Source of the DNA: Pyropia yezoensis
Taxonomy: Eukaryota; Rhodophyta; Bangiophyceae; Bangiales; Bangiaceae
DNA: 64,000 nt
NCBI GenBank assembly: GCA_009829735.1
Contig: CM020619.1
Span: 2,238,590-2,302,589, forward strand
Direction of reading: 5' to 3'
The first letter of the stretch is position 1; each line of letters starts with the position of its first letter. Shown here one piece after another: positions 1,788-58,620 of this stretch. The notes under the pieces were generated by a model. The model saw only the letters and a program-made list of their open reading frames with translations. It did not search any database and was not told the origin of the DNA. A program made the position numbers and the translations under genes.

Positions 1788-1974
1788 GACGTCCAGAATC
1801 CGGGGGGGAACAAGAGGGCCAAGGTGAAGAAGAAAGGGGGGGGGACAGAATCGGAGCAGGTGATCGTGACCGGGGTGAAGACGCTTGACCTCGGCACCGG
1901 TGTGGACGTGCTCGAGGCTGTGCACCGTGGCACCTGGTTCGGCCCGAGGACGTGCCGGACTAGGGAGGGAGCTA

Positions 1975-21977: not shown

Positions 21978-23019
21978 GTGGTGTCTCCGGTCGGGCCTGG
22001 GGTGCTCCCAGACGTATTCCAAGGGTCCGTCGGTGCCGACGGGTCTTCACCAATGGCCGTCGACGGTGGGTCCTCGTCGCGTCGTGGTCCCGCCCTTCTC
22101 CTTTCTCCTGTCTGTTCGCCGGCGGGGCCGGTTCCTCCAGCTTCCTACGGGTGTCGGTCGGCAAGTACGGGAGCTCGGTGTCGAGGCCGTCGCTAAGCGC
22201 ACGGGTCTGTCCTGTAAGTCGAGCTCACTGCTGGAACTTCACGATGCCGTGAGCTGGTCGGCGTTGCTGACCCTTCTCCCCTAGCGGGTCCCTCAGGCTG
22301 GGGTTCCCTCTATGCCTCAACACTCGTTACGGGTCCGCCGGGCTGGCCCGGGTGAAGACCACTACCGTGGGTGGGCCTCTACCAAAGCCGCTGCTGACAT
22401 GGGGATTCCCGTGGTATTGCCTGACCCTGGTCAGGTGTTGTCCCCCTGGTTCGGGGCGGTGCCGACGTTGGGTGCCCAACGTTGGTTCCGTGACTGGGAC
22501 TTGGCGGAAGGGGGACGCGAGGTGTCTCGCCGGCGCGGGGAGACCCGCCGTGTTACCGGTGGGGCCTCCTCAAAGGGGCCGGCCCCCTCATCCGGGTCGG
22601 GTCCCGCCCAGGACTGGTCCTCGTCTCCTCCGGCGTTGGCCGGGAAACCTCTTTTGGCTCCGGGGACTGCGTCCACCGCCTCACGTCGGCCGGTTGCCGC
22701 CCAGTGTCTGCGGTATGACGGCGTTGACGCCGTTCTCATACGCGAGTTGCGGGAGGATTTTTCGGCTAGCTGGGGGGACGTCCCCTCTGGTGCCGCGCTA
22801 GTCGGTACCGCTCGCAACCTTGTGGGGGTCTTGCATATCCGTCAGTAGGCCCTGGACTCGGTGGCGTCCGGTCGTGGCACCCACCTCGAGCTATGCTCTG
22901 AGGTTACTCAGATAGTCAACCGCCGAGAGGATGCCGACCGATGGGGTCTGAAAGTGTACGCAGCAACGCGTGAGTGGCGTCTGTCGAGGGGCCAGAATCT
23001 CCCTTGGGGAGGAGTGTGA
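21978..23019 (+). pseudogene. Antisense ORF of family-1 chromovirus, copy C (internally deleted)
   Basis: On the plus strand, opposite to its LTR, this copy shows SPMAVDGGSSSRRGPALLLS, then FLLSVRRRGRFLQLPTGV in another frame, then MPQHSLRVRRAGPGEDHYRG with DMGIPVVLPDPGQVLSPWFG, and finally LRYDGVDAVLIRELREDFSA. A TAG at 22846-22848 stands where the other copies have Thr or Val, and the frame continues to a TGA at 23017-23019. Compared with copy A the conserved central region (about 300 residues) is missing. The copy is decayed, but order and strand are as in copies A and B. Confidence 0.75.
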
Positions 23020-23859: not shown

Positions 23860-24218
23860 CAAGCCAACGGGACTTCACCCGGCGCAAGCGGGCCGCAGTA
23901 CCCTGGCTATCCCAAGAAGAAGGTCGGGAATATGTCTACGTCAAGTTTGTGGACCATGCCTGGAGAGACGGACGCCTGTACCTGCGAGTACGCTGGTTCG
24001 GTTTTAACCCGGCAGATGATACCTGGGAACCCTCAAACCGGCTACCCATCGCGGATGTCTGTGCCTACACGCGACGGAACGGGATAGAGGGCACTCCAGT
24101 GGCCAGAGCCGGCAAGATTCTGGAGTCGGACTCGGAGGAGGACCAAGAGGATGGGGCCAACCAAGACCCTCGGGACGAGCCGAGTTCATCCGCAACGGAT
24201 GCGGAACAAGAGGATTGA
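23860..24218 (+). CDS. pol: Chromodomain-containing C-terminus of a chromovirus integrase (family 2, copy E)
   Basis: The frame emerges from the assembly gap and carries a chromodomain: YVYVKFVDHAWRDGRLYLRV followed by RWFGFNPADDTWEPSNRLP, with the aromatic and acidic positions typical of chromoviral integrase tails that direct insertion to marked chromatin. It ends in an acidic tail (SDSEEDQEDGANQD) and a TGA. Everything upstream is in the gap. The antisense ORF of the same element starts its 3' end 145 bp further on. Confidence 0.85.
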
Positions 24219-24363
24219 GAAGAAGGGAACGGGTATATCAAGGAGAACACGCAATACAAGCATGGAACAATCAAGGAAAACAAGCACCCGCTCGGGCAAC
24301 CCTTCTCTCCGCCTCTTCCCTCCTCGCTTCTCCCAAGACCCTCACCCTCCTTGCCTCCAACTA

Positions 24364-26481
24364 CTACTCCCGGCGCGGACGCTGAGCCGCGGGAGTGTCC
24401 TCCAGCGCTGCCTCCGCGGCACGACGGGAACCGGAGGAAGGCGGGATGACGTAGTGCGGTGGGCGCGGTGCATCCCGGTATGACGCCATCGGAGTAGTAC
24501 CGGTAGTTGCCGGGCGCTCCCGCTCATCCAGATATGCCTGTCGGCGCCCCTGGAAGCCAGTGAAGGTTTCTGACCGCTGCTGGGCCAAGCCATGCCGCGT
24601 CAAGGTCGCCAGAAGTTCGCCAACCACCGGGCTGTTCGACATCTGGCCGCTGTCCGCGCAAGCAAACACCCGGTCAACCACGTTGTTCAAGACGCTGGCG
24701 TAAGTGCCCAGCACCAGGGAAGACCCGACGCCCTCAACCTGCACCGGAAGACGACCCAGATGGTCTTCAATCATACCGACGTCGTACTGGTCGCATGTCG
24801 GGCCACCTTGGTTCAGGTACCAGTCAGGCACCCGGAAGCGGGTAAGGCGCAGAGTCGGCACCGGAATCTCGAACCGCCCCGAGGATGACACCACCGGACG
24901 GTCCACAACGGCCCCCGAAACCGGAGTACCCAACTCCAGCGGAGGCACAGCGCCGCCAGCGTTGGAAGAAGGCGTCCGAGGCGGAGCGGCCGGAGTGGTA
25001 GGCGACCGCACAGTCACTCCCAGACTCGCCGCAGACAGGCGCGGTGCCGGAGGAGCTTGAAGTACCGGCACAGCCGGAACAGGGCGTGAGCGCGCCGGCG
25101 ACGGTTCAGGCAAGGCCACCGGGGCGATAGGTGCAACAGGAGGAAGCGGAGCCGCCGCAGACGCCTGACCGACCGCCGCGGCCCATCCCGACTCCTGCAC
25201 CGGCGGCCCAACAGGCAGAAGATCAAGGGCGGCCGGGGCAGGAAAGCTACCTAGCTGCGGCCACGCCGGAAGCGGCGTCGCCAGCTGCACCTTGGCCGGA
25301 GAAGACTGGTAGACTACCTGCGCCCAACCGAAGCCATCCCGACGCGGGCGGTTCTGGTCGGCAATCGCGTTCAAGAAGTTCCGGTCATGCACCGGCACCA
25401 GACGCCGGAAGTCAATCATCGCCTGGAAGAGCCCCTTGTACTTTTCGTCCTGGCTGCACAGGAAGTCGACGGTCAACTTGTCGACAATCCAGACCATCAG
25501 GAGGTCAGGGAGAAACCAAAGCCGGTTGGACACCAAGACCTCGTGAAGCCAGTGGTTGGCCGCCAAGACTGTCATCTCGGACGTGTACATCATGTACGGG
25601 ATCTAGTGGAAGAAGCCCTTGATCGACGCCTGAGTCAAGGCGTCCAAGAAGTACCAGGTGAAGGGGATGCTGGAAGGAGCAAACCCGACCGGGATCTCGA
25701 CTTCCTGCTGCTGCGGGATGACCTTGGGGTAGTACGCCGCCCGGTTAGCCTTATCCAGCTTCCAGAACTCCTGATGGGTGCAGCTCACGAGGAAGTCACG
25801 CTGACGGCCGCGTCGCTCGCCTTGCTCCCGTGCCGGTGACAACTTGGAGTACTTCCGGGTCAGGAAAGGCGGCTCCAGAGCGGCCATGCTCGGACGGGGG
25901 TCGCAGCTCAGGCTCCCCGACCCCGTGAGCGCCTCGTCCCAGACCTTGAGCGCCCGGTGGACGTACCCTTCCTCCTCCGGCCACCGGAGAACGGACGCGG
26001 ACACGCGACGCTCGGTCAAGGGCAGATCCAGCACCAGCGCGAAGAGGAGATCCTCCAGACGAGCAACCCAAGAGCAACCCGAGAAGCTCTGAGAGCGGTC
26101 TTGTGCCAGGCGCATCTGGTCCGCCGTGTGAAGACGAGCCTTATCCATCTCTGTCAAGACCCCGCGCTGGAGTTCCTTGCGCGAGAGGTCCAAGCAATCC
26201 TGCTGGCACTGGGCCGCGCCGGCGTTGCCGACCACCGTGGAGTAACGCCGGGCCGCCAGAGGGTCCTGCCCAAGAAGCATCTCCGGGAGACCCACCGGGG
26301 GGGTGTCGACCGGGTGCATCACAGAAGCCGGGGGAACCCAATCCGTCCCCGCCGTGGCGACCGGCGCCGACATCGACACCCGAGGAACCGGAGGCAGGAG
26401 AGGGGCGCGACTACCCGAGTTCTCCTCCGCAACACTCGCCGCCGGAACCACGGGCCCAGCTTGGATCTCGGAACTGGACAT
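24364..26481 (-). pseudogene. Antisense ORF of family-2 chromovirus, copy E (one nonsense codon)
   Basis: This copy is nearly intact: about 705 codons from MSSSEIQAGPVVPA to the stop at 24364, with a single TAG at 25603-25605 where copy D has TCG (Ser). An N-terminal Pro/Ala-rich stretch is followed by MDKARLHTADQMRLAQDRSQ and WPEEEGYVHRALKVWDEALT. A Phe/Trp/Leu-rich core (FTWYFLDALTQASIKGFF, LWFLPDLLMVWIVDKLTVDF) comes next, then a Pro-rich hinge. The C-terminal domain includes YDVGMIEDHLGRLPVQVEG and VVGELLATLTRHGLAQQ, and a basic tail follows. It converges on the pol frame, separated by 145 bp. No known domain is recognised. Two copies differing by few substitutions and keeping almost the whole frame imply recent selection on the protein. 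Confidence 0.75.
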
Positions 26482-26665
26482 GACGTCCAGACTCCGGGGG
26501 AACGCGAGGGCCAAGGTGAAGGAGAGAAGGGGGGCAGAGAACCGGAGCAGGTGATCGTGACCAGGGTGAAGACGCTCGACCTCGGCACCGGTGTGGACGT
26601 GCTCGAGGCTGTGCACGGTGGCACCTGGTTCGGCCCGAGGACGTGCCGGACTAGGGAGGGAGCTA

Positions 26666-27236
26666 TGTAGCATCCCTGGCCCCGACTTGGCGCCGACCCG
26701 GGACTACAACCAGAGGGCACCAGGTGCCAGAACACGCCCGCCGTGTGGTGATGGTTGGCGGCCGTGGCCCGTGCCCGGCACTGGGATGCGGTGGACTACG
26801 CTATCCACACGTGAGAGAGGGATTGCTGATGGGTTTTTGCATACTTGTGAGGGACTTGATTTGAGAGAATTTGAGTGTGAGATTAGTGAGTGGGAATAGA
26901 ATTAGTAGTGATAGTGGCCCCCGACCTGACGAGGTTAGACTCGGGTCGGGGCCACTCGGGGTTATGGGGGGGCTACCTGGCCAACGTGCCGAGGCTCCCC
27001 CAGATGCACGTTAAGAGGGACAGCGAGGCGCCCTTGGCCCGCGCCCTCAGGAAAAAGACAACTGCGCGTTTGCTTTCCTCTTCCCCGTGTGCACTACCGT
27101 GCGTATCTGTTTGCTCTGCGAGCAGGCACGTGAGGCAACAGGCATACCATTCTCGTAGTTCCCCTTTCTGTGTTACCTGTCCCTTTCCCCCGAGGGATAT
27201 TGACACGTGTCTGAGAGGATCGAGTTTTATACCACA
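26666..27236 (+). mobile_element. Family-2 chromovirus 3' LTR (copy E) with polypurine tract
   Basis: A purine tract (about 26653-26662) precedes TGTAGCATCC. The end is ATACCACA at 27236, and the body is almost identical to 1975-2546. Immediately after 27236 the sequence switches to the RT region of a family-1 element, with no primer-binding site or gag between. The junction is therefore a truncation or recombination point. Confidence 0.85.
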
Positions 27237-30212
27237 CTAAGAAAGCATCACGTCATGTGGACAGGCGGGGTCTTGGGTACCATTGGGGCAACCCAACATC
27301 GTATAGACCAGGTACCAGGCGCACGACCCGCCCGGTCACAGCCGCACCGAGCGGGACCTATGCAACGAGAGATCGTTGATGGAGAAGTGAAGAGGATGAG
27401 CGAAGCGAAGGTGATACGACCTTCGATGTCGCAGTGGGGTGCCCCAGTCGCTATCGTACCGAAGAAGGATCAAACCCCTCGGTTTTGCATCGATTATCGA
27501 CGCCTCAACTTGGTTACCAAGAAAGACTCATACCCTTTACCAAGGATGGATGAATGCATCGACTCCCTGGGGGAAGCTCCAGTGTTTGCCACCATCGACT
27601 GCAATGCCGGATACTGGCAGATCCCAGTGGCGGACGAGGATATCCCCAAGACGGCGTTCGTCTGTCACAGTGGAGTGTACGAGTTCCTAAGGATGCCCTT
27701 CGGATTGTCCTACGCCCCAGCTACATTCCAGCGGGCTATCGACATTATACTGTCGGGGGTGAAGTGGCGTAACTGCCTAGTGTACCTCGATGACGTCATC
27801 GTCTTCTCGCGTAACATGGATGACCATGTGCAACATGTTCACGAGGTACTCACCCTCTTGAGGAACGCCGGGGTAACCGTGCGTCTGAAGAAGTGCGCCT
27901 TCTTTTAACAGACGGTCGAGTATCTGGGCCACCAGATAACCCCTGGTAAACTAGGGGTACTCGAAGCCAATACCCGGGCACTCCGGGATGCCCGGTTCCC
28001 TAACACCCAGACGCAGCTCAAGAGCTTCCTGGGAAGGTGCAACGTATACCGACGGTTCGTCAAGGACTTCGCTCGGATAGCTAAACCGTTAACGGTTCTT
28101 ACGAGCAGTACCTTGCCCAACGTACTCCAACCCTCTTCGCCTAGCGAAGAGGAGGCATTCGAGTCGCTGAAGCGAGCCCTACTATCCCCACCCGTCCTTG
28201 CGTTACCGCACAGACGGGGTACCTTCGTCATCGATGTCGATGCGTGCCACACCCAAGTGGGATGCACCCTGTTACAGGGAGAGACGTTGATCGGTTCCGA
28301 TAACGTAATCCCGGACCTACGTCCGGTAGGGTACTTCAGCCGGACACTCAACCCGGCTGAGCGTAACTATAGTGCCACCGAGCGTGAATGCCTCGGAGTT
28401 ATATGGGCAGTGCAACTGCTCCGTCCATACCTGGAGGGCTCCAGGTTCATCGTGAGGTCCGACCACGAACCCCTACGATGGCTCCTCAACCTTGGTGACA
28501 AGGATTCCGATAGCCATGGGAGGCTAGCCCGATGGAGGCTGAAGATGGCCGAGCACGATTACCGTACCGTGTATAAGGCTGGGTCAACCCACCATCTCGG
28601 AGACGCATTGTCTCGACTCGACACCCCGAGCGGGGATACCCGCCCGGTGGACGAGGACATCCCGGTGGTACCGGTCTGCATGGTCGGTAACGCTACCCAA
28701 GGTATGGTTGACCATACCATGCCACACCGAGCGTGCCCACTGACCCTCGCGGACTTCCGCGAGGCACAAGACATTGACGACGACTGCAGACGCCATCGCG
28801 CTAACCTCCTGGCCGGTACGGCCGGCATCTTCTCCGAGAATGAAGATGGACTCATATACCGGCGGGCACCCGCCGATGGACGACATCAAGTCGTGGTTCC
28901 CGTGTCCTTACGGCAAGCCGTCATGGAACGAGAACACGAGAACCCTACAGCCGGACACCCGGGGGGTTCTCGTATGTTCGCAGCAATGCGAAGGTTCTTC
29001 TACTGGCCAGCAATGGCCGTCGACGTGGTCGACCACGTAAGTGGATGCCACCCCTGTGCGCGTAACCGCATGAGTCTACATAGGCAGGCGTCTGCCATGA
29101 AACTGTTCCCACCTGATGGGCCCAACGAGCAGGTCGCTATCGACATACTCGGGCCACTTCCGGTAACGGAAGAAGGGAACAGGTACATCCTGGTCATGTC
29201 GGACCGCTTCACTAAGCTGTCACGAGCGGCAGCCATCCCGAACGATGCGGCCTACACCATCATGAACGCAGTGGTTGACCTTTGGATCAGTGCTTACGGA
29301 GTCATGAAGCAACTCCTCTCCGATAACGGAGCAAACCTTACGTCAGCATTCTGCACTAAGGTCCTGGCCATGTTTGGTATCGAACCACGTCGGGCATCCG
29401 ACTACCACCCGCAAACCAACGGGCAAGTGGAGCGGTTTAACCGCACCATCGTCAAGATGCTACAGTGCTACGTGGCCGAGCACACGAACACTTGGGACAG
29501 GCTCCTGTCCGTACTCACCCTGGCATACAATGCCAGGCCACATCGGAGCACAAACATCGCCCCACTGGAGTGGGTCATGCCCTTAGGCGTCGGTAACCTA
29601 ACGCTGCCGCCAGGCAGGTGCACTCGGTATGATACACCGAAAGGCCGACCGGCCGAACGTATACACCTAGCTTGGTTTGCCAAGCTATCGTGGATGATTC
29701 CTAAGCTCAAGGGTGCCCTTGACAGAACACAACTTCGATACAAGAAGAACTTCGACGCCCGACTACGGGTGCGCAACGCTACCCTGATGACAGGTAACTG
29801 GGTCTACATCAGACACCAGAAGTTCCGGGGGAACAAGCTCATGCAACCGGTCAAGGGACCGTACCAGATTCTCCACAGAGATGACCACCCTGTTATCTTA
29901 CACTCCGATACGGAGATCGAACGCATCAGTGTGAATGATGTCACACCTGCTCCGAAGCCGGAACAGCCTCAGCCGGTACCGGCTGGGTTGCTACATGAAG
30001 CTCTTACAACCCACCGGTCAGATGACCCGGTGGGACCGGATGGTATTCCATACCAAGTAGAGAGCGTGGTCGGACATACCGACCCAGATCTACCAGAACC
30101 CTGGTACGTCAAGGTAATGTGGATCGGTTACGACTCACCCACCTGGGAACATGCGGCGAATATACCCCGCCAACTCCTCATGCCTTACATGAGGCGACGA
30201 CGCCTACTGTAA
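27237..30212 (+). pseudogene. pol: Chromovirus pol, family 1 copy 1 (RT, RNase H, integrase, chromodomain)
   Basis: The polyprotein is complete from RT onward, with one TAA at 27906-27908. The RT has RFCIDYRRLNLVTKKDSYPL and an intact YLDD (27783-27794). RNase H has FVIDVDACHTQVGC, ATERECLGVIWAV and RSDHEPLRWLL. The integrase zinc domain (HENPTAGHPGGSRM, CHPCARN) is followed by the core with AIDILGPLPVTEEG, LSDNGANLTS and QTNGQVERFNRT, so D, D and E are all present. The C-terminal chromodomain reads YQVESVVGHTDPD then WYVKVMWIGYDSPTWEHA, ending RRRRLL. The TAA sits where copy 2 has CAG (Gln). Gag, protease and the 5' LTR are missing because the LTR of another family abuts at 27236. Confidence 0.9.
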
Positions 30213-30290
30213 AAACCCAACCGACACCGACTTCGGCAGTTGGGGGGTGAGGCTTATACCTACTAAGTAGGGTGTGACATGGTTACGGCA

Positions 30291-30378
30291 GACTTAGGTT
30301 TCTAAGTCAAATCAGACTTAGGTTTCTAAGTCGAACCAAGCTTAGGTAACTAAATAGAGTCAAGCTTAGGTAACTAAG
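30291..30378. repeat. Array of four short hairpins between pol and antisense ORF
   Basis: GACTTAGGTTTCTAAGTC occurs at 30291-30308 and 30315-30332, and the variants GCTTAGGTAACTAAAT (about 30340-30355) and GCTTAGGTAACTAAGT (about 30364-30379) follow. Each is a small imperfect palindrome. The array lies just past the pol stop and before the end of the convergent antisense ORF. The second copy of the element has a related array at 39772-39813 with different bases but paired stems. Confidence 0.7.
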
Positions 30379-30597
30379 TAGACCAGAACCTTAATAAGTT
30401 GACTTAAAGGTAAAAGCGAACTCCGATAATATCGAAGTAACTAAAGGGCTTACGAAGGAGGATGACCTCCCCAAGCCAAGACACAGAGTGAGGGAGGATG
30501 ACCTCCCCAAGCATGAACCAACCGGAAGAAGTTGGACGGGAGGCAAGGCACCACTGAGCCAGAAGGGGTACTCCCCAGGGCAGCAAACAGAGGCAAG

Positions 30598-30660
30598 CAA
30601 TGCCCCCAAAGAGGATGAGTTTATACTCACTACTACCCGGCCACCATAAGGGTTACCGGG
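30598..30660. promoter_or_regulatory. Conserved block downstream of antisense ORF A
   Basis: CAATGCCCCCAAAGAGGATG, TTTATACTCACTAC and CACCATAAGGG recur at 40054-40116 in the second element, more strongly than the DNA around them. It includes an imperfect hairpin (CCGGCCACCATAAGGGTTACCGGG). Its place just after the antisense ORF suggests a 3'-end formation signal for the antisense transcript; this is inference. Confidence 0.45.
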
Positions 30661-30689
30661 GCCCTCTCCCTCACAAACAATAGCACTCC

Positions 30690-33159
30690 TCAGTGGGTAG
30701 ACCCACTGCCCGAGGGAGGCCACTCACGCGTAAGCGCGTATACCTCCGTGCTCCACCGGTCGGCAATCTCACGACGGTCAATCACCCGAGTTACCTCGGT
30801 GCATAGCTGGACGAGGGTGCTGCGGCCAGCCTCGACGTCCTCCAGAGCTGTCTGGAGGCGGTCAAGCACGCCACCGAAGCAACGCGCTGACCCAACAAGC
30901 GCAGCACCTGGGGGGATATCCCCCCAGCTAACAGAGAGACCCTCCCGCATTGCGCGGGCAACAAGGGCGTCAACGCCCTCATACCAGAGACGCGGACCCC
31001 CGTCATGCATGACAGGGGCGGGAGGTGACACTGGCGCAGCCAGAGGAGCCACAGGAGCCGACAAGGCTACCACCGGAGCCGGTGGCACCTGATACGCGGC
31101 CCGGTAGGACACTACCGAAGGGGCCCTACCGTAAACCCGGCGGGGCTCCGCCCGACGACGGGGCACCTCACGCTCCCCACCCGCAGAGCCCCACTCTCGG
31201 GGACGACGGCCAATCGCCGCCGGGATCGGGTTACCGAACCACGGGGCAAGGACCTGAAGAGGGTCATGGGTAACCATGGGAATACCCAGGTCAGCGACAG
31301 CCTCGGTGGACGCCCACCCATGGCAATTGGGCTCACCCGGCTGAGTACGCCGGATACGCAACGAGTGACGAGGCAAGGGGGAAGCCCCTGCCTGCGGGTC
31401 CCGGTACGGGGGAAGGGCCAACACCCCAGCCCAGCTCACGGCATCGTGAACAGCCAGCAGGGCCTCGAACGCCCGGGCCAACCCGGTCTTGGCGGCTATC
31501 AGGTCCACGCCCAACTGCGCGATGTGCCGACGGACACCCGTCAGAAGATGAAACAGGCGCCCCTGCCGGCGGACGGACAGCAAGAAGGAGGAAGCCTGCC
31601 CGAGGGTTACCTCAAGGGTGAAGGTACCCTGCAACGGGTGGACCGGCCGGGAGGCCAACACACTCACGAAGTATCGGAGACAGGAACCGGTGTCAAACCG
31701 GAAAGCAGGGGCGGGTTCCCACCCCTCCTGCCACAGAGGCGGGCGCACGGGAGTGTATACCGGCGAACGACCGTTGCCGGTCTGCAACGCACACGTTATA
31801 TCGGTGCGGAGCGCATCCGCCATGACACCATGGTTGCGTCGCCAGCTCGACGCCGACTTCAACCCCGCCATAGGCGGGTAGGGGGCCGTCAACGACAGAT
31901 ACGGGGATACCCCCGGGTAATACTCAAAGTCGGGATACCGGCCGGTATCGCCCACCGTCTCCCCAAACGCAACCGGCTCCGCCGCCGCCGCAATCCCCCG
32001 AGCACTAGCCAGGTAGTCAACCTCCCGCGGCAACGCGGGGGCAATCAGGTCGCATACCCCGAAGGCGGGGTCAAGGTAGACCTCACCCCGTCCCACCCGG
32101 GTGCGCCAGAGCTGCGCATGCCGGTCGTCCGGCTGACTCAGGATCCAATGGTGATCCACCCGCACCGCGTTCGGCTGGTTGACCAGCCGCACCAACTCCC
32201 GCTCCCAACTCGGATCCACCTTGACGCGCCGAAAGGTCCCTCCAGAGAAACGCGGCTGGTGGAAGTCCACCCGCATCCGCCCAGCGGACTCCATTGACTC
32301 TTGCACAGTCATGCCTCGAACCCGAGCCACCAAGTCGGACATCGACATGGCGGGTTGACCGGCCAACCGCAAAGGCGACGCCGCCACCGACCAGGCGGAC
32401 GTGGCCGCCCAACGGTACAACCCGGGCCGGCCCAGGAAGAAGCGCCGGCGCCGGCGGAAGCCCAACGGGTAGGTGCACCGGCGCCGGGGCACGGGGACGA
32501 GGAGGAAGAAGTAGGGCGGGCACCCGCCCGGAGTAGCTCCCGGTGTCAACCGCCATGGGGGAAGGAGCGTCTTGACCACTCGACGCCCGCGGCACCGCGG
32601 GTAGGGTACCGGCGCCGGCACCACCCGTCGACGTCGCCCCCGCCTCGGAAGGGGAAGGCACTTGGACAGCCTCCGGAGCCGAAGCACCGGCCGTGCGGAC
32701 ACCCGCACCGTCTTGACTCGCCGCACCGGGGGTCGCACCGCCACCACCACCCACGTCAACGTCGGGATCGCCTTGAGGAATCACCGTCCGGACACCCGGA
32801 CCACCTTGCCCAGCCGGAGTCGGCCGGGAATCGCCACTTCCGCCGTAGGGCGGGCCATCTTGGGGTAGCTGCGGCGAGCCGGCACCGGCACCAGGCTCCA
32901 TCCGGGTAGCCGGAAGGGAAGGGGTAGAGGCAGCCACGCGCGGTTGACCGCCGGGTTGACCCCCGACCGACGGCACCGTCGTGCCGCTGCACACGGACGA
33001 CAGTCCTCCGGCCGACACACGGACGGACGCCACAGGCTCGTCGTCTTCCGACGAGCTCGCCCCGTAACGCGCGGCGGCAGGACCGACAGGCGCGTCGTCC
33101 TCCATCTCCTCCCCGATCAGGAGGTCTTCCTCCTCCCCAAGCACCTGGGGATAGAACAT
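30690..33159 (-). pseudogene. Antisense ORF of family-1 chromovirus, copy A (one frameshift)
   Basis: It starts at ATG 33159 (MFYPQVLGEEEDLLIGEEME) with an acidic, Gly/Pro/Ala-rich first third. The frame shifts once near 32390, after which the conserved part reads MSDLVARVRGMTVQESMESA, then VDHHWILSQPDDRHAQLWRT and RRNHGVMADALRTDITCALQ. A further block is FLLSVRRQGRLFHLLTGVRR, and the C-terminal domain is LWYEGVDALVARAMREGLSV then LCTEVTRVIDRREIADRW. Total length is about 820 codons. Copies B (40164-42599) and C (21978-23019) share these blocks. The pol gene of the same element converges on it. The LTR lies upstream of its start, so a promoter within or next to the LTR is plausible. No known domain is recognised. 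Confidence 0.8.
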
Positions 33160-33737
33160 GATAACGGGTGGCAGAGTCCCCCGCACCCACAAGCCGTCGA
33201 CGGCTACGACCCGGTACGGTGGGACAACTGGGACGAGCCAGGGAAGCGCGGGCACCCGCGCTTATGACCACAAACAGCCACGAGAAGCGCCGCAGGCACG
33301 CGGGTCGACCCGCGCCCCACAGGGCTACGAACGCGCTCCACCCAGGCACCTGGACCGGAGCCACGCCCCCCCCACACACGGGGTAAGCAAGGGGGGTCAC
33401 CCCCAACCGACCCCACGCAACGCGGGCAGCCCCCGCCCCCCCCCACTCAATCGTCCACACGAGAGGGGCTCCCCTACCACCAGACGCCTGGTGGTGGATC
33501 CGCTTGCACCACCCCTCGGAAAGGGGGGTCGTGAACAGAAACCCGCATCGGGAATTTAACGGTCCGGAAAACGGATCGTGTGTGTACCACACAAAGGGGG
33601 GCACCCTCCTCAGACAACCTCGAAAAGGGGTGTCTGTCGCGACAGGGCGCAAAGCCCCACCCGACTGGTAAACGGTCACGCGACCCACTTACATTCGGTA
33701 ACCCGAATGCAACTCGACCCGAGGACGGGCCGAATCT

Positions 33738-33749
33738 AAGGGGGGGATA
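33738..33749 (+). other. Polypurine tract of family-1 element
   Basis: AAGGGGGGGATA directly precedes the LTR start TGTAGC. The reverse complement of the same arrangement flanks the copy C LTR (21388-21400). Confidence 0.75.
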
Positions 33750-34111
33750 TGTAGCAATATGGTCGGCCGTATTGGGACCCTAATATTAGGGGGCTACTTC
33801 TAATCCTTGGCTTTCAATTTGAGAGTCCGGACTGGTCACGGTATCTATAAGTTACGTATGACCAGAGGGACTTGCATCTGGGGGTGGACGGTAGTTAGTA
33901 GTGTCTCCGAGGGTTTATAACGAGGGGGCCGGCGGCGAATCCACCGCCGGCCAAGGTAGAACAACAAACCCCTCCCATTTGGGCTCCCATCTTGGTCCCG
34001 TGGCTTGCGCTCCAAGGACAGCAACCTTGGCCTCCCGGTGACGTTGGTGCCGATCCCCCTTGGTGAGTGTTCCCTGAGAGTGGACGTGCGAGGGATTCCC
34101 ATTGTGCTACA
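33750..34111 (+). mobile_element. Family-1 chromovirus LTR shared by two tandem copies
   Basis: The LTR starts TGTAGCAATATGG and ends TTGTGCTACA, so its ends are the inverted hexamers TGTAGC/GCTACA. A homologous LTR of 363 bp lies at 21025-21387 on the other strand. It is at once the 3' LTR of the copy on the left (antisense ORF and polypurine tract adjoin it) and the 5' LTR of the copy on the right (gag follows within 140 bp). Such a shared LTR is what LTR-LTR recombination between neighbours leaves. Confidence 0.88.
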
Positions 34112-34248
34112 CGGAGCTGGAGCGCAGCCAGGCGGGCACCCGCGGGTTGAGTACGGCGGGCACGTCGGCTGTGCCGGAGCTGGCGGCATATGATGGGAGA
34201 AGCCCCACGTATCACGCTCAAGATGAGAGCGAAGTACCGGTTTCGGAA

Positions 34249-35809
34249 ATGGATCCGGTACACCTACCGGCGGCGCTCATCCAAGCCATGACTACGCAGG
34301 TGACTGCGAGTATCACGCAACGCATGGAGTCGTCGGTGTTTACCCGACGCCTAGCGAAGCGCCTGGATACCCAGGAAGCGCATCCGGAGATCGTGAACGA
34401 GGTCTTCCGGGCGATGCTGACCCCCGACCGTTACCGACTGAAGAACCGGTCTGGTCGAGTGTCGGAAGCGATGCGTAAAGCCACGCATTGGGCTATCCGA
34501 TCCATGCAGACCCTGATGAAGGGAGTTCCGATGTTCCGAAGGCTCAATGAACGTCCATTGGCGGTCATTGGGTTCCTGACTAGTTTCAAGGAGGCCGCAG
34601 ACAAGGCCCTCGTCAACGAGGGGCTTGCTCTGGAGATACTCTTCTTCTTCGTGGACGAACGGGTGAGGCGTGAGCTTCGGCAGGCATCCCCGATTCCAGG
34701 GATGAGGGTGGTAGCCACCCCCATGGATTGCCGTGGGGTCCTCAAGGAGCTGCTGAGCAGCTACCTCCGTGAGGACAAGTGCGAGGACCACGACCGGGCC
34801 CGCCGCACGGCTACCTCCCAGTTCTGGGAGGATGCGGAGGTATTCGGTCGCCGAATCCAGGAGCTCGACTACGAGCTAGGAAAACTCCTTGGCGAAGGAG
34901 AGACTCGAGCCATCCTGTTCGCAGGAGTACCGAACTACGTGCGGATATCCGCACGGGGGGCCAACACGGCCCGGACTAACTTCAGCGGACTGATGAACTC
35001 GTGAAAGTCGCTGGGGGATGCATACCGGGTCCTACACCCGGAGTGTGCCCGGGCTCCCAAACTCAAGGAGGATGGGGCCAAGCGTCAGAAAACCTTGAAG
35101 CCAAGGCAGGAGAAGGTTGAAAGCAAGTCTGCTCCGGTCCTCGAGGCGACGGGGTACCCCCACCAGGACCTGGACCAAGGTATAGTTGACCAACAGGGCA
35201 GCCTGTTGCTGCCAGCTACGCCGGTAATAGATGACCAGTGTACGGTGGCGTACATTTCCCCTGCGGGATCGCGCTTCCATGTCAAGGAAGCGGATGGCCG
35301 TCGCGTCCCGTATGTACGGACGACGGGTTACGCCCCCATGACGGGAACCCCCACCAACCCATGTAGGCATGCCCACGTGGGCAGTCCGGGCGGAGGCACC
35401 TCCGCAGGTGGTAAGCCGACAAAATCGCTTGGGTGAGTCCATGTTCCGGATGACCCAGGGACCCAAGGCATACCAGGGACCCGGCAGCGGGATACCCGGG
35501 CGGACACCTCGGGGCTATGGACTGGCTACTACACGCCCACCCTGTCCGGGCGGACCGGCCAGGTGCATTTTGTGTGGGGATCCCCAGCACTGGGTGTCGT
35601 CATGCCCCCTCATCCCGGAGGAGGCCCGACGGGTGGCAGCCCAACGCAAGGCATCAAGCGAAGGATACCCCCATCGAGAGCCGTACGCCGGGGCGAGCCC
35701 CGCTGTCAGCGGGCCGCGGCAGCCTTGCGCGGCGATGGCCGTCGAGGAGGAACCCCCTCGTACGGATGACCCCAAGCTACTCCCCGAGGCGAGCCCGGGA
35801 ATCGAGTAA
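34249..35809 (+). pseudogene. gag: Chromovirus gag, family 1 copy 2
   Basis: I take the start at ATG 34249 (MDPVHLPAALIQAMTTQVTA). The capsid-like helical region runs to a TGA at 35002-35004, and the same frame continues to 35436. A frame change between about 35370 and 35436 leads to the nucleocapsid part, with one zinc knuckle of the C-x2-C-x4-H-x4-C type: CILCGDPQHWVSSC. The Gag protein would form the particle that packages element RNA. The interruptions make this copy non-functional unless the TGA is read through. Confidence 0.8.
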
Positions 35810-36096
35810 GGGGAAGGGCTACAGTGGGGAAATCCCCACGAAGAGCACGGTTAAGTAGGCGCCGAATCGACCCACGGGTACACCTTCCTGCCCAGACCCA
35901 ACATTCTCGAGTGTAGGAGGTACGATCCCCACGGAGAGGGGGACAAGCGACCGGGGAACCTCGGCGCAAGGACCAACGCAATGACGCGACACAGGACGCC
36001 CGACTCACACCGGATGTCGGTGCGGGACACGTCCTGAATACCTTGCAGAACTTTAAGGTGCCAGCCACACTGGGGGTTGACCCCCAGTCGATATGA

Positions 36097-39000
36097 TTGT
36101 ACCACTTCGTACTGGACACCGGGGCTGGACCGAAACTGGTCCGAAAGGATACCCTTCCGAACAAGTGCCTCCCACGAGTAAGAGTGACCCGGGGACCCAC
36201 GATCAAGGACGCGAAAGGTCTGCTCATTCGCACGACAGCAGCGGTACCGCTGCTGCTTACGATCGGGGACCTCACTACGGAGGGTACCCTCCGCGTGTGC
36301 GAGACCCTATCGTTACCCTGCATCCTCGGGTGCACCTTCATCAACACGTGCGTGGATGCAATCCGGCCAGGCCGGAGGACCGTCGAGCTACAAGAAGCCG
36401 ACGGTACGAAGCAAGGGCAGACGGCTATCGTCAGGGACCTGATGCCGCAAGGGAGCCACGTGAACGCGTCCGAGGTATACGCAAGCGTAGAACCGAAGAC
36501 GCAATGGCTGGCTAAGGAACCACTTGAGGTAGTAGCGATCGCCAAGACCCCCGAACGGGAGCAGCCCGACAGGGGGAAGCCCTGTCAAGCACCAGTCCCC
36601 GCGGATCTTCCGAAGAGAGAGCAAGAAGCCTTGACGGCTATTGCCGAGGCTGACCTCGGCCATCTCCTTCCTTCGGTAGCCAAAGGGGTAAGATGAATGC
36701 TGAAGAAGCACGACGTCATGTGGACAGCCGGAGCCTGGGGCATCATTGGGGCAACCCAACGTCGTATCGACCTGGTAGCAGGCGCACGACCCGCCCGGTC
36801 GCAACCGCACCGCGCGGGACCTATGCAACGTGACATCGTTGATGGGGAAGTAAGAAGGATGAGTAAAGCGAAAGTTATCCGACCCTCTATGTCGGAATGG
36901 GGAGCCCCAGTCGTTACTGTACGAAAGAAGGATCAAACCCCTCGGTTTTGCATTGATTTTCGACGCCTCAAATTAGTTATCAAGACGGAGTCATACGCTT
37001 TACCAAGGATGGGTTGGTGCATCGACTTCCTGGGGGAGGCCACAATGTTTGCCACTATCGATTGCAATGACGGGTACAGGCAGATCCCAGTGGCAGAGGA
37101 GGACATCTCCAAGACAGCGTTCTTATGTCACAGTTGGGTCTATGGGTCCCTAAAGATGCCCTTCGGATCGTCCAACGCACCCGCTACAATTCAGCGGGCC
37201 ATCGACATTATACTGTCGGGGGTGAAGTGGCGTAACTGCGTAGTATACCTCGACGGTGTCATCGTCTTCTCCTGTATCATGGATGACCATGTCCAACACA
37301 TCGACGAGGGACTCACCCTCTTGAAGGACGCCGGGGTAACCCTGCGACTTCAGAAGTGTGCCTGCTCCCAGCAGACTGTTGAGTATCTGGGTCACCAGAT
37401 AACCCCAGGCAAGCTGGGTGTACTCGAGACCAACACCCGGGCACTCCAGGATGCTTGATATCCGAACACCCAGACGCAGCTCAAAATCTTTCTGGAAATG
37501 TGTAACGTATACCGACGGTTCGTCATGGACTTCGCCCGTAAATCCAAACCGTTTACGGTTCTAACAAGCAGCACCTTGCCCAAGGTACTTCAAACCCCCT
37601 CGCCTCGCGAGGAGGAAGCACTCGAGTCGCTTGAGCTGGCCCAGCTGTCCTCGCCCATGCTCGTGTTACCGCGTAGGCCCGGGACCTTCATCATCGATGT
37701 CGATGCATGCGATACCCAAGTGAGATGCACCTTGTTACAGAAACAGACGCTCATCGGTGCCGATAACGCCATCCCGGACCTTTATCCGGTGGGATACTTC
37801 AGCCGGACACTCAACCCGGCTGAGTGCAACTATAGTGCAACCGAGCGTGAGTTCCTCGGAGTGATCTGGGCAGTGCAACTGCTCCGACCATACCTGGAGG
37901 GCTCCAGTTTTATCGTAAGGTCCGACCACGAACCACTACGTTGGCTCCTCAACCTTGGTGACAAGGATTCGGACAGCTATGGGAGGTAAGCCCGATGGCG
38001 GCTGAAGATGGCCGAGTAAGACTACTTTACCGTATACAAGCCAGGGGCCTCCCACCATCTGGGAGACGCCCTGTCCCGCCTCGACACACAAAGCAGGGCT
38101 ACCCGGCCGATGGACGAGGATATCCCGGTTGTACTGGTGTGCATGGTGGGCAATGCCACCCAGGGTCTGGTCGACCATACCATGGACCACACCGCGGGCC
38201 CGCTGACTCTCGCGGACTTCGCGAAGCACAGGCCAATGACGATGACTGCAGACGTTACCGCGCTAACCTCCTGGCTGCGACGGCAGGTATCTTCTCAGAG
38301 AACGAGAATGGTGTGATATACCGGCGGGCACCCGCCGACGGACGTCACCAAGTAGTGGTTCCTGTATCCCTACGTCAAGCCGTGATGGAACGGGAACACG
38401 AGAACCCTATAGCCGGACACCCGGGGGGTTCACGTATGCTCGCAGGCATGCGAAGGTTCTTCTACTGGCGAGCAATGGCCGTCGACGTGGTCGACCACGT
38501 AAGGGGATGCCCCCCATGCGCACGTGACCATATGAGTCTTCACAGACGGGCATCCGCCATGAAACTATTCCCACTGAATGGACACAGTGAGCAAGTCGCT
38601 ATCGACATACTCGGACCGCTTCCGGTATCGGAAGAAGGGAAAAGGTATGATCTGGTCATGTCCGACCGCGTCACTACGCAGTCGGGAGCGGCAGCCATTC
38701 TGGACGAGACGGCATACACTATCATAAACGCAGTAGTTGACCACTGGATCAGCGCCTACGGAGTCATGGACCAGCTCCTCTCCGATAACGGAGCTAACCT
38801 CACATCGGCATTCTGCACCGAGGTCATGGGTGTTTTCGGTATCGAACCACGTTGGGCATCCGACTATCACCCTCAGACCAATGGGCAAGTGAAATGGTTC
38901 AATCGTATCATTGTCAAAATGCTGCGGTGCTACGTAGCTGAGCAGACGAACACTTGGGACAGGCTCCTGTCCGTCTTAACCCTGGCATACAATGCCAGGC

Positions 39001-39674
39001 CACACCGGAGCACGAGCATTGCCCCACTGGAGTGCGTCATGCCCCTGGAAGTGGGGAACCTCACCCTGCCGCCGCGCAGATGTACCTGGTATGATACACC
39101 GAAGGGCCGACCTGCCGAGCGGACCCATCTAGCTTGGTTGGCCAAACTATCACGGATGATGCCTAAACTCATGGGTGCCATTGACCGAACTCAACTTCGG
39201 TACAAGAAGAACTCCAACACCCGAGTACGGGTGCGCAACACGACCCTGGTAACAGGTGACTGGGCGTACATCCGACACCAAAAGTTCCGAGGAAACAAGG
39301 TTATGCAACCGGTCAAGGGACCGTACAAGATCCTACGCAGGGACGGGCACTCCGTCATCCTCGACTCCGATACGGAGATGCAACGCATGAATATGAACGA
39401 TGTCACTCCGGCACCGAAGCCGGAACAGCCTCAGCCGGCACGAGCTTGGTTGCTATATATTGCGCTTACCACCCACTGATCAGATAATCCTGTGGGCCCA
39501 GACGGAGTCCCATACCAGGTAGAGAGCATAGTCGGACACACCGACCCCACCCGACCTGATCCCTGGTACGTAATGGTCACGTGGGTCGGTTACGACTCAC
39601 CATCCTGGGAACGGTCAACTGAAATGCCCCTCCAGATCCTCATGCCACGTTTTTGGCGACACCGCCTATTGTAA
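36097..39674 (+). pseudogene. pol: Chromovirus pol, family 1 copy 2 (protease to chromodomain, many defects)
   Basis: The protease has the active-site motif FVLDTGAGPKLV. RT, RNase H, integrase and chromodomain follow in the same order as copy 1. Damage is plain: in-frame TGA at 36694-36696 between protease and RT, TGA at 37456-37458, TAA at 37987-37989, a 1-nt loss near 38219 and a TGA at 39477-39479. The RT motif reads YLDG instead of YLDD. The integrase catalytic Glu is Lys (QTNGQVKWFNR). The chromodomain (YQVESIVGHTDP, WYVMVTWVGYDSPSWERS) is still readable. This copy adds the gag-protease half that copy 1 lacks and so defines the full gene order. Confidence 0.9.
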
Positions 39675-39771
39675 CAACCCAACCGACACCGACTCCGGCA
39701 GTTAAGGGCTGGGGCTTAGAGCTACAAAGAGGCTTTGACCTACTAAGTAGGGTGTGACATCGTTATGGCAA

Positions 39772-39813
39772 GACTTAGTCTTACTGAGTCAGGTAGGGCT
39801 TAGTTGAACTAAG
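39772..39813. repeat. Short hairpins between pol and antisense ORF, copy 2
   Basis: GACTTAGTCTTACTGAGTC (39772-39790) and GCTTAGTTGAACTAAG (39798-39813) each pair with themselves. They occupy the same place as the four hairpins at 30291-30378 and differ in sequence while keeping stems. The string TACTAAGTAGGGTGTGACAT just upstream (39741-39760) is identical in both elements (30261-30280). Confidence 0.65.
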
Positions 39814-40053
39814 GGGACACCTAACCTTAATATGTTTGAACTTAATGGGACGGATAACTCCGATGACATCGAAGCAACCTGGGGCTTACACCAGGGTCAG
39901 GCATAGGATAACTCATGGAGTCGAGCGATCGGACAAGGGAGTATGACCTTCACAGGTATTATCCTACCAGGATGGGTCGGGGAGTGAGAGAGCATGGGGC
40001 AAGCTATGGTTCAGCCAGAAGAGGGAATCCCCGGAGGAAAAGAACACAGTCTA

Positions 40054-40116
40054 GCAATGCCCCCACAGGGGATCAGTTTATACTCACTACCTCCCCGTCA
40101 CCATAAGGGCCACCGG
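40054..40116. promoter_or_regulatory. Conserved block downstream of antisense ORF B
   Basis: The counterpart of 30598-30660, sharing CAATGCCCCCA, GTTTATACTCACTAC and CACCATAAGGGCCACCGGG. It lies about 50 bp beyond the end of the antisense ORF. Confidence 0.45.
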
Positions 40117-40163
40117 GTCCCCCTCACTCATGTCGACCCCGCCTCGCGGCCAAGACACAGGCC

Positions 40164-42599
40164 TCAGTAGGGGGTACCCCCACCGGCAGAAGGGGGCCAT
40201 TCACGCGTCTCCGCGTACACGTGCTCACTCCACCGGTCGGCAATCTCACGACGGTCAACCGCTTGAGTCACCTCAGTGCAAAGCACAAGTAGAGTTCTGC
40301 GACCAACCTCCACCGACGCCAGGGCTACCTGGATGCGGTCCAGTACCTCCCCAAAGCAACGCACAGTACCGACCAGCTCAGCACCCGGGGGAATGTCCCC
40401 CCAGCTAACCGAGAGCCCCTCCCGCAACTCGCGGTTAATACGGTCGTCAACGCCCTCATACCATAGACGTGGGCCGCTGTCTGGCAGGAAGGGGGCACAC
40501 GAGGCCAGCTCCGCAGCCGGAAGGGCCGACACTGCCACCGCCGGAGCCGGCGCAGCTTCCACCTGAGCCGGCGATGCCCAGTACGGAACACGGCCCGACC
40601 GCGGGGGGTGCGAAGGCCGCATGGAAGCAGTTCCACCGGCTACCCCGCGGGAATCCTCTCTTCGACGGGGCGGCTAACGTCCTCTACCCGTAAAGTCCCA
40701 CTCACGGTAACGGCGAGAAGCCCTCGCACCGATCGTAGTCGGATTACCGAACCAAGGGGCCAAAACCTGGAGAGGGTCAGGCAGGACCGTGGGGATCCCC
40801 AGGTCAGCGACGACCTCGGTGGATGCCCACCCACGGTAGTTGTTCTCACCCGAGCTAGCTCGGCGGATACGAAGAGAATGACGAGGCATGAGAAGAGCCT
40901 CAGCCTGCGGCTCATGGAACGGGGGCTAGGTCGATACCGCCGACCAATTCACGTCATCGTGAGCGGCCAGAAGGGACTCCAACTCCAGGGACACACCCGT
41001 CCGCTCAGCAATGGCTTCAACGCCTATCTACCTACTGTGCCGACGGCCACCCGTCGGCAGATGAAACGGTCGGCCCTGCAGCTGAGCAGACAGCAGGAAG
41101 GTAGAAGCCTTCCCGAGGGGATCCTCCACAGAGAGGACACCCTACATCATTTGCGCGGGGCGAGAAGCCAACACACTACCGAAATATCGGAGGCACGGCC
41201 CGGTGTCGAACTGGATAGCAGGGGCGGGCTCCCACTCGTCCTGCCACCCAGACGGGCGCAGCAGGGTGTACACCGGATTACGACGGTTACCGATCTGCAA
41301 GGCGCACGTGATGTCCGTGCGAAGGCCATCAGCCATGATGCCATTGGTACGCCGCCAGCTCGACACCCACTTGAGCCCAGCCATAGGCGGGAAGGGTGCC
41401 GTCAACGACAGGTACGGGGGTTCCTACCGGAAGTAATCCAAACCGGGATACCGGTTAGTACCGGGCACGGTCTGCCCGAACGCCACAGGGGCCATAGAGG
41501 CCGCAACCCCCCGAGCGCCAGCCGGGTAGTCGACGTCCCGCGGACACGCAGGAGCCACCAGGTCAAACAACCCGAAGGAAGAGTTAAGGGCAACCTCAGA
41601 GGCCCGCCCGACTCGGGTGCGCCAGAGTTGGGCATGCCCGTCGTCCAGCTGGCTCAACACCCAATGTTGCTCCACTCGCACCGATTCCGGTTGCGCAACC
41701 AACCGAGCCAACTCCCGTTCCCAACACAAGTCCCGCCAGACGGTACGGGGCGTACCTCCCAGATAACCCAGGGGGTGGAATTCGACCAACATCGGTTCAC
41801 CAGAGTCCATAGGCTCCTTAACCGACAAACTCCGGACTCGGGCCACTAAGTCGGGGACCGACGACGGGGGCGCCCCCACCGTCCCAGCCACGCCGCCACC
41901 CAATGGGGCAACCCGGGCCGGACCAGGAAGCACCGCCGGCACCGGCGGGAGCCCAACGGGCACTTGTATCGGCACAGCCGGGCAGGGCCGAGGAGGAAGA
42001 GGAAGGGCGGGCCCCCGCCCGGAGTAACTCCCACCGTCTACCGGCATGGGGGACGGCGCGTCCTGACCTCCCGCCGCACGCAGCACCGCGGGTAACACTT
42101 CGGCCGCCGGAGGCACCTCCGCGACGGGAATATTCTTCACTGGCCCCCGGCGGGTAGCCCCGGAGCTAACGGGTACGTGCGCCGCGACAAACGCCTGACC
42201 ACCGGCGAGCCAGGGATCCGGACCACCTTGACCCGCCATCACGAACGGGGAGCTGCCACCGCCGACTCCGCACGCTTGACCACCATTGCCCCCAGCTGGG
42301 CCACCTTGAGGGAGCCCTGTGCCAGCACCGGCGCCCGTTCCGAGGCAGGCAGCCGGCGGAGATGGAAGCGGCTCTACCACCAGAGGTTGACCTCCCCCTG
42401 ACGGCGCCGTCGCGTCACTGCACACCGACAGCAGCCCATCCGACGGACGACCCGCCGGTACACAAGACGTAGCCGCGCAGAACGGATTCCCGTCCGTCTC
42501 GCACTCTTCAGACGAACTCGCAAGGTAAGACAGCCAAGCCGAAGGAGACGGGACAGCCTCGTCGTCCTCCATGCCCTCCTCAACCAAGAGGTCGTTCAC
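40164..42599 (-). pseudogene. Antisense ORF of family-1 chromovirus, copy B (truncated start, several stops)
   Basis: Homology to copy A begins at 42599 (DLLVEEGMEDDEAV) and includes SVPDLVARVRSLSVKEPMDS, VEQHWVLSQLDDGHAQLWRT and RRTNGIMADGLRTDITCALQ. Further blocks are MPRHSLRIRRASSGENNYRG and LWYEGVDDRINRELREGLSV. A TAG at 41424-41426, further stops near 41140 and frame changes break it. The DNA on the start side (LTR and polypurine tract) is gone: at about 42600 it is replaced by a transposase-like gene. The N-terminal acidic, Pro/Gly-rich region is as long as in copy A but much changed, whereas the C-terminal domain is well kept. Confidence 0.8.
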
Positions 42600-56698: not shown

Positions 56699-56837
56699 GG
56701 ATGCACTGTACCTACTTGCTGTCCCCGCCACCGCAGACGGCGGCAGCCCAGGGAGGGGGGGGGGGGAGGGAGGGGGGGGGGGGGGGGCCGCGACGGGGAA
56801 CCCCGCCCGCGTCGCCGCCGCCGATGCGGGTGCTGCC

Positions 56838-56871
<34 letters not shown>

Positions 56872-58589: not shown

Positions 58590-58620
<31 letters not shown>

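What the first reader, a model, noticed from the sequence alone, without database searches (positions are those of the whole stretch)
23860..42599. Chromoviruses with a long antisense ORF convergent with pol
Five copies in two families (1-2546, 21025-23019, 23860-27236, 27237-34111, 33750-42599) show an ORF of about 700-820 codons on the minus strand of the element, next to the polypurine tract and LTR. Where the pol end is visible (copy E and both family-1 plus-strand copies) the ORF converges on the chromodomain. Such architecture is unusual for Ty3/gypsy elements; antisense ORFs are known mainly from some plant lineages (for example Grande and Retand/Ogre-type elements). The protein matches no domain that I recognise.
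Basis: partly seen in the sequence, partly recalled or inferred. Interest (0 to 1): 0.88.

Follow-up and report, generated by a model that had tools for sequence, protein, structure and literature searches.

The report
Antisense gene in seaweed retrotransposons
Two related families of recently mobile retrotransposons in the nori seaweed genome carry a real, selected gene written backwards between their polymerase gene and their end repeat, next to a fixed mirror-symmetric DNA signal; backward genes are known in some plant and fungal elements, but this protein matched nothing described.

Summary
The host is Pyropia yezoensis (scaffold lengths match). The window carries decayed copies of two related Ty3/gypsy, chromodomain-type families. 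In both, a 705-codon (family 1) or about 789-codon (family 2) gene lies antisense between pol and the 3' LTR. It is no chance frame: 64 of 101 family-1 and 41 of 64 family-2 scored copies sit in full-length stop-free frames; dN/dS is 0.20 and 0.30 in the true frame against 1.28-1.85 in four of five other frames (fifth 0.28/0.37). All 98 pol-aORF pairings found are convergent; family 1 has 151 bp between the stop codons in 83 of 88. LTR-bounded 9.65-kb elements have 5-bp target duplications and near-identical LTRs. Family 2's protein has 39-51% identical relatives on several Pyropia vietnamensis contigs; no accepted Pfam, PDB or fold match. New here: a dyad, CGRCCCG-AGGA-CGNGYCG, sits about 17 bp before the LTR start in both families (1,099 of 1,174 genome matches; reversed control 0). 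Best reading: an element-encoded accessory, probably regulatory, protein placed like the antisense genes of plant Grande/Retand and fungal Boty, but a different protein. Expression and function are untested. New variant of a known kind.

The parts
1..1787 (-). Copy A (family 1): antisense gene, residues 1-437 and 459-596 in two frames, running off the window
   Evidence: tblastn
1940..1959 (+). Dyad CGGCCCGAGGACGTGCCGGA, 15 bp before the LTR of copy A
1975..2546 (+). Family-1 LTR of copy A (98.4% to that of copy C)
21051..21387 (-). Family-2-like LTR of the inverted remnant (74%)
21404..21423 (-). Dyad CGACCCGAGGACGGGTCGAA (fully paired arms), 16 bp from that LTR
22099..22977 (+). Inverted remnant of a family-2-like antisense gene, C-terminal third, with stops
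   Evidence: 51% identity
23862..24215 (+). Copy C (family 1): chromodomain end of pol
24367..26481 (-). Copy C: antisense gene, 705 residues covered, one in-frame stop; facing the pol end
26631..26650 (+). Dyad, 15 bp before the LTR
26666..27236 (+). Family-1 3' LTR (571 bp; identical copies elsewhere in the genome)
27237..29027 (+). Copy D (family 2): RT/RNase H, 5' truncated against copy C
28962..30197 (+). Copy D: integrase and degenerate chromodomain
30693..33159 (-). Copy D: antisense gene (C-terminal 557 residues at 93.5%; N-terminus 47%; frame change near 32364)
33715..33734 (+). Dyad CGACCCGAGGACGGGCCGAA, 15 bp before the LTR
33750..34111 (+). Family-2 LTR (362 bp): 3' end of copy D and 5' end of copy E
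34432..34965 (+). Copy E: gag-like region
35932..36399 (+). Copy E: protease region
36697..38489 (+). Copy E: RT/RNase H (decayed)
38424..39632 (+). Copy E: integrase/chromodomain (decayed)
40173..42596 (-). Copy E: antisense gene, residues 11-788 at 55% identity, with in-frame stop; element cut off at about 42600

Best explanation
These are two related, recently mobile Ty3/gypsy families of Pyropia yezoensis whose third gene is a true protein-coding gene on the antisense strand between pol and the 3' LTR. Shown by sequence: position, orientation, open copies, purifying selection, LTR/TSD/PBS structure, a start and acidic stretch kept in family 2 across two Pyropia species, and a fixed dyad between the gene's start and the polypurine tract. 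Inferred: the gene is transcribed from a promoter in or just inside the 3' LTR, towards pol, ending in the spacer between the facing stop codons; its product (Pro/Ala-rich, lysine-poor, acidic N-terminus in family 2, a ~340-residue conserved domain, a C-terminal helical segment) acts in trans on the element's own nucleoprotein or LTR-proximal DNA as a regulatory accessory factor, as has been proposed for Grande gene23, Retand TRP28 proteins and retroviral antisense proteins. The dyad is a candidate target. That the gene is real and element-borne: about 0.97. That its role is regulatory rather than structural or enzymatic: about 0.45.
For: Open frames: 64 of 101 scored family-1 matches lie in stop-free frames of at least 761 aa; 41 of 64 family-2 matches in frames of at least 793 aa (one of these, L050, does not end in the usual C-terminus). 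Both lists hold only the best-scored copies (of 728 and 4,674 candidates). Selection: dN/dS 0.202 and 0.298; shifted and opposite frames 1.28-1.85 except the opposite frame that shares third positions, 0.279 and 0.365, which has at least 12 and 13 stops per copy; pol yardstick; D versus E dS 0.86, dN 0.28; median 6-20 stops in each of the other five frames; none in the true frame, by choice of copies; third-position diversity 1.9-2.8 times that of positions 1 and 2. Architecture: 88 of 88 and 10 of 10 pairings found are convergent; LTR pairs, 5-bp TSD in 5 of 5 pairs tested; primer-binding site TGGTGGAGCAGCAGGGGA in the one copy read of each family. Other species. Dyad. Regulatory reading: acidic N-terminal segment DDLLxEEEE kept between species, no membrane-like segment (highest 19-residue hydropathy 1.54 and 1.42), precedent in PMC7264820 (one section and passages) and PMC11963269 (passages).
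Against: No expression evidence was available. No domain above a Pfam cut-off, no PDB match, no confident fold, so DNA binding and a nuclear role have no direct support. The acidic segment is not seen in family 1 (most acidic 30-mer -4 against -12). Homology of the two families' proteins is only suggestive. In family 2 the aORF is under weaker constraint than pol (0.28 against 0.11). The TATA-like box about 112-115 bp before the family-2 start is present in 10 of 17 copies only.
Confidence: 0.6

Rival explanations
1. The antisense protein is a structural or replication co-factor (partner of Gag, packaging or transport function) rather than a regulator.
For: Large size, Pro/Ala-rich linkers, C-terminal helical segment that could oligomerise (helices 480-506, 512-522, 525-541); purifying selection about as strong as on pol in family 1, weaker in family 2.
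Against: No membrane-like segment; no similarity to Gag or any capsid in Pfam or PDB; antisense placement uncouples it from gag-pol translation, which is odd for a stoichiometric partner (inference).
Confidence: 0.3
2. The functional product is the antisense RNA (damping of gag-pol by pairing or small RNAs); the protein is incidental.
For: Antisense RNAs inhibit Ty1 transposition (cited in PMC4007536, passage seen) and this was raised for plant aORFs (PMC7264820, passages seen); the facing transcripts could overlap.
Against: A selected reading frame with dN/dS 0.2-0.3, third-position diversity excess and a start kept across species points to a protein.
Confidence: 0.06
3. A host gene was captured once by an element and hitch-hikes.
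For: No viral or transposon homologue of the protein outside Pyropia was found, so an external origin cannot be traced.
Against: Same place and orientation in two families with 55% identical RT; relatives on at least five P. vietnamensis contigs, one cluster holding 19 sequences; purifying selection among copies.
Confidence: 0.04
4. Long chance frame in GC-rich DNA opposite or beside real genes.
For: GC is about 65% in the window and frames over 250 aa are common (67 listed).
Against: Frame-specific selection, stop counts, Markov control and cross-species conservation.
Confidence: 0.01
5. For the dyad: it serves plus-strand priming, RNA packaging or integrase recognition near the polypurine tract and has nothing to do with the antisense protein.
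For: Near-fixed distance to the LTR edge (16-17 bp in the places listed) points at the end-forming machinery; both families also share PBS and the LTR start TGTAGCA.
Against: It lies in the upstream region of the antisense gene, where an operator would be; as RNA the regions do not fold better than shuffles (z -1.5, 0.6, 0.4).
Confidence: 0.55

Closest known systems
Retand lineage (plant Ty3/gypsy) with antisense TRP28 ORFs; Grande gene23, RIRE2
   Same: Protein-coding ORF antisense between pol and 3' LTR, present in most copies there, conserved like other element proteins (PMC11963269 passages; PMC7264820 one section and passages)
   Different: Retand is a non-chromovirus lineage of flowering plants; TRP28 (PF04195) was not found here; the protein here matched none of the libraries searched
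Boty-type elements of Botrytis cinerea with antisense gene brtn
   Same: Element with an additional antisense gene before the 3' LTR (PMC7264820 section 5; reference title in PMC8365987)
   Different: Fungal host; brtn sequence was not held, so no comparison was made; whether Boty has a chromodomain was not checked
HTLV-1 HBZ and other retroviral antisense proteins
   Same: Antisense gene of an LTR element; HBZ is nuclear (PMC11963269, passages seen)
   Different: HBZ is a much smaller bZIP protein from a spliced mRNA (recalled); no bZIP match here at E<=1
Chromodomain Gypsy elements of plants and fungi
   Same: Gag, PR, RT-RH, integrase and C-terminal chromodomain-like region
   Different: No antisense gene mentioned in the passages seen; PMC2864245 marks an additional ORF of unknown function in some elements, orientation not seen. 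A 2012 survey listed no retrotransposon chromodomains for Porphyra yezoensis ESTs (PMC3350952, passages seen)

Membership tests
Ty3/gypsy LTR retrotransposon | RT and RNase H before integrase in pol; LTRs, short TSD | tested here: met
   Domain order; LTR pairs; 5-bp TSD in 5 of 5 pairs
Chromovirus | Chromodomain at the integrase C-terminus | tested here: inconclusive
   Family 1: Chromo E 3.3e-5, 24.2 bits against cut-off 25.1, 21.6 in L002; family 2: no Pfam match at E<=0.1 but aligned with family 1's region
Chromovirus | Placement in the chromovirus clade of an RT tree | not tested
   No reference RT set was fetched
Retand / antisense-ORF plant elements | Protein-coding antisense ORF between pol and 3' LTR | tested here: met
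Retand / antisense-ORF plant elements | That ORF present in most copies of a family | tested here: inconclusive
   88 of 150 chromodomain matches and 10 of 59 family-2 pol matches have a listed aORF neighbour, but the lists are capped
Retand / antisense-ORF plant elements | TRP28 domain in the antisense protein | tested here: not met
   No PF04195 at E<=1 in 17 members of A4 or in L002
Boty/brtn | Sequence similarity to brtn | not testable with these tools
   brtn sequence not held
HBZ-like antisense regulators | bZIP domain | tested here: not met
   No Pfam match
HBZ-like antisense regulators | Antisense transcription from the 3' LTR | not testable with these tools
   No RNA data

The most novel reading that the evidence does not exclude
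The antisense protein and the dyad before the polypurine tract form a matched trans/cis pair: the protein recognises its own element's 3' end (as DNA in the antisense promoter, or in the reverse-transcription or integration complex) and so controls antisense/sense expression or marks the element's end, a self-recognition module that two diverged families of red-algal gypsy elements have kept.
Probability: 0.15. Interest if true: 0.78.

Novelty: new variant of a known kind. Interest (0 to 1): 0.56.

Why it matters
Antisense genes of LTR elements are known from flowering-plant elements and a fungus, and their function is open. A selected antisense gene in red-algal, chromodomain-type elements with an unmatched protein suggests that the arrangement has arisen or been kept more than once. 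The families are high-copy (1,099 exact dyad-LTR junctions) and include very young insertions, in a genome with 48% repeats, and the dyad gives a concrete target for a binding test. LTR elements are named as explaining genome growth in Pyropia (PMC7423979, passages seen).

Tried and rejected
Domain and fold searches led nowhere: Pfam gave only DUF6214 below its cut-off (4 of 17 members) and nothing for family 1; PDB by sequence none; AlphaFold2 gave mean pLDDT 32.3 and 29.5, with only the family-2 C-terminal stretch 477-542 above 50 (47 residues reach 70); Foldseek best E 1.2, taken as meaningless. A viral-contig scan with the P. vietnamensis protein found no relative. Homology of the two families' proteins: BLASTP E 0.11, shuffles reaching the score 11 of 1000 (central domain) and 10 of 1000 (C-terminal), but 350 and 857 of 1000 against the P. 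vietnamensis protein, and hhalign probability 1%: left as a hint only. RNA hairpin reading of the dyad: not more stable than shuffles. TATA box for the antisense gene: 10 of 17 copies. Literature: ten searches (listings, with passages of eleven papers and one section of one of them looked into) showed no report of an antisense ORF in red-algal or chromodomain gypsy elements; subscription papers are not held.

Rows dropped before counts: 12 of the 150 rows that overlap rows were left out; dN/dS used 16 of 30 family-1 and 21 of 30 family-2 loci (those open to the end), pol 13 of 16 and 13 of 21; the diversity profile used 13 and 17 loci. Frame counts (64 of 101; 41 of 64) were made by eye. 62 of 150 chromodomain matches, 13 of 101 family-1 aORF matches and 49 of 59 family-2 pol matches had no listed partner; the lists are capped, so this is neither presence nor absence. 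The LTR lists are the 40 best of 1,360 and 1,681 candidates, so near-identical pairs are over-represented. Outside the tandem array, one of two family-2 LTR pairs (C1:23859374-23870489) has no listed aORF or pol.
Full report
HOST. The assembly holding the window has 107,475,971 bases and three large contigs of 43.59, 34.33 and 29.39 Mb. The published Pyropia yezoensis assembly has scaffolds of 29.4, 34.3 and 43.6 Mbp, 65% GC and 48% repeats dominated by LTR elements (PMC7423979, passages seen). The window is therefore taken to be Pyropia yezoensis (nori), C2:2238590-2302589.

WHAT IS IN THE WINDOW. Self-comparison and tblastn with intact genome copies give two families. Family 1: copies A (1-2546) and C (23860-27236), LTR 571 bp, plus another, 87% identical LTR at 13559-14126. 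Family 2: copies D (27237-34111) and E (33750-42599), LTR 362 bp, and an inverted remnant (21051-22977). In each the antisense coding region lies beside the LTR, and where pol is present it lies between pol and LTR. (Copy E's own 3' LTR is missing; its gene ends the copy.) All five window copies are broken. Pol domains follow the Ty3/gypsy order; RT is 55%, integrase to chromodomain 38% and gag 28% identical between families.

COPIES IN THE GENOME. With the C-terminal half of copy C's gene, 101 of 728 candidates were scored, all 95-100% identical; 64 of 101 lie in stop-free frames of 761 aa or more. With copy D's gene, 64 of 4,674 candidates were scored; 41 of 64 lie in stop-free frames of 793 aa or more. 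These are the best-scoring copies, so the open fraction of all copies is probably lower. A third search with the inverted remnant scored 150 of 1,104 candidates, mostly 49-55% identical members of the same protein family.

ELEMENT STRUCTURE. Among the 40 listed family-1 LTRs, four pairs lie 9,649-9,652 bp apart (outer edges), each enclosing one aORF match and one chromodomain match. By score, both LTRs equal the query LTR in three pairs and in the fourth one LTR differs by about one base. For family 2 a 10,724-bp pair encloses pol and aORF. All five pairs tested (four of family 1, one of family 2) have 5-bp target duplications (one is a run of G). The primer-binding site TGGTGGAGCAGCAGGGGA is the same in the one copy read of each family (L070, L077). 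Among 150 chromodomain matches, 88 have an aORF match within 2 kb downstream; all 88 are convergent and 83 are separated by exactly 151 bp. For family 2 all 10 pairings found (of 59 pol matches and 202 aORF matches given) are convergent. The rest have no partner in these capped lists.

SELECTION. Nei-Gojobori on codon alignments of open copies: family 1, 16 copies, dS 0.0415, dN 0.0084, ratio 0.202; family 2 conserved part, 21 copies, dS 0.0845, dN 0.0252, ratio 0.298. The same alignments read in the two shifted frames and in two of the three opposite frames give 1.28-1.85; the opposite frame whose third positions coincide gives 0.279 and 0.365, higher than the true frame, and it contains at least 12 (family 1) or 13 (family 2) stops per copy. 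The pol C-terminus in 13 of the same loci of each family gives 0.294 and 0.107, against 0.197 and 0.284 for the aORF of those loci: the aORF is held as tightly as pol in family 1 and less tightly in family 2. D versus E, the oldest comparison: dS 0.86, dN 0.28. The N-terminal low-complexity part of family 2 is looser (0.47). Diversity by codon position is 0.0075/0.0074/0.0204 and 0.040/0.036/0.075.

THE PROTEIN. Family 2 (about 789 aa, pI 6.2, 4 lysines): start MSDPQVP, an acidic stretch DDLLxEEEEE, a Pro/Gly/Ala-rich region, a conserved central domain, a second linker and a C-terminal part for which AlphaFold2 gives three helices with pLDDT of about 65-86. Relatives: P. vietnamensis proteins at 39-51% identity on at least five contigs, one a cluster of 19 sequences; two of them keep the start region and the acidic stretch (MGEPPSRLQEDDLLMEEEELEGDE). 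Family 1 (705 aa, pI 6.6): the only hit is a 98% identical, window-encoded protein. Neither has a recognised domain, a PDB relative or a membrane-like segment (PDB by sequence and by fold for family 2 only). The two proteins may be distant relatives (collinear weak matches, each about 1% by shuffling), but a profile comparison and the P. vietnamensis protein do not support it.

THE DYAD. Comparing the junctions showed a 20-bp element, CGRCCCG-AGGA-CGNGYCG-RA, between the antisense gene's start and the polypurine tract. In the window it occurs four times (two mismatches allowed; all four are exact), each 15-16 bp from an LTR edge of these families, against 0.02 expected. Genome-wide the 18-bp core has 1,174 matches and the reversed control none; 1,099 matches of the core are followed within 15-19 bp by TGTAGCA, the start of both LTRs, control none. 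The first 100 or so places that were listed show the two family types only. The third arm position pairs as A-T in the remnant and G-C in family 1, and is mismatched in family 2; family 1 has one mismatch elsewhere. Self-comparison shows no match of 150 bp or more between the two families' non-coding 3' regions. In family 2 the 150-bp bin holding LTR edge and dyad, and the next one, have diversity 0.050 and 0.022, against 0.08-0.14 in the following 300 bp. Its role is unknown: end formation or packaging on one side, operator of the antisense gene on the other.

MECHANISM. Shown: a selected antisense gene in a fixed place of recently mobile elements, with a fixed dyad upstream. Inferred: an antisense promoter near the 3' LTR, termination in the spacer, and a trans-acting accessory protein. 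The regulatory reading rests on precedent (Grande gene23 is nuclear and has its own promoter, PMC7264820; Retand TRP28 is predicted to bind DNA, PMC11963269; passages seen) and on the acidic segment of family 2. It is weaker for family 1. A structural role is the main rival.

NOVELTY. The arrangement is known; the host group, the chromodomain-type carrier, the protein family and the dyad are new as far as the ten literature searches listed under Tried and rejected show. Hence 'new variant of a known kind'.

Noticed in passing
G000:C3:16908197-16917714: Five family-2 LTRs at a spacing of 2,287-2,292 bp in one orientation: a tandem array or satellite built from LTR plus about 1.9 kb.
   Followed up: no
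window 23360-23859: 500-base run of N (assembly gap or withheld stretch) lies between the inverted remnant and the chromodomain of copy C; the join there is unproven.
   Followed up: no
window 46000-60000: GC of 71-82% with long open frames on both strands and imperfect inverted repeats at 56761-57282; three ORFs from 54.3 to 61.8 kb gave only one weak DDE_1 match.
   Followed up: partly
window 8509-9933 and 62598-63395: Minus-strand ORFs with a predicted AAA-ATPase (PF09820, E 3e-22) and a subtilase (PF00082, E 4e-33) domain.
   Followed up: no
window 13559-14148: Family-1-like LTR (87%) followed by a primer-binding-site match with one mismatch: the 5' end of a further element; other gypsy remnants at 14814-15275, 17415-17825 and 19480-20172.
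   Followed up: partly
G000:C1:1371000-1373200 (L078): A subgroup whose chromodomain is 94% identical (nine listed copies score the same) has the antisense gene too, closely similar but broken in frame in the one copy read.
   Followed up: partly
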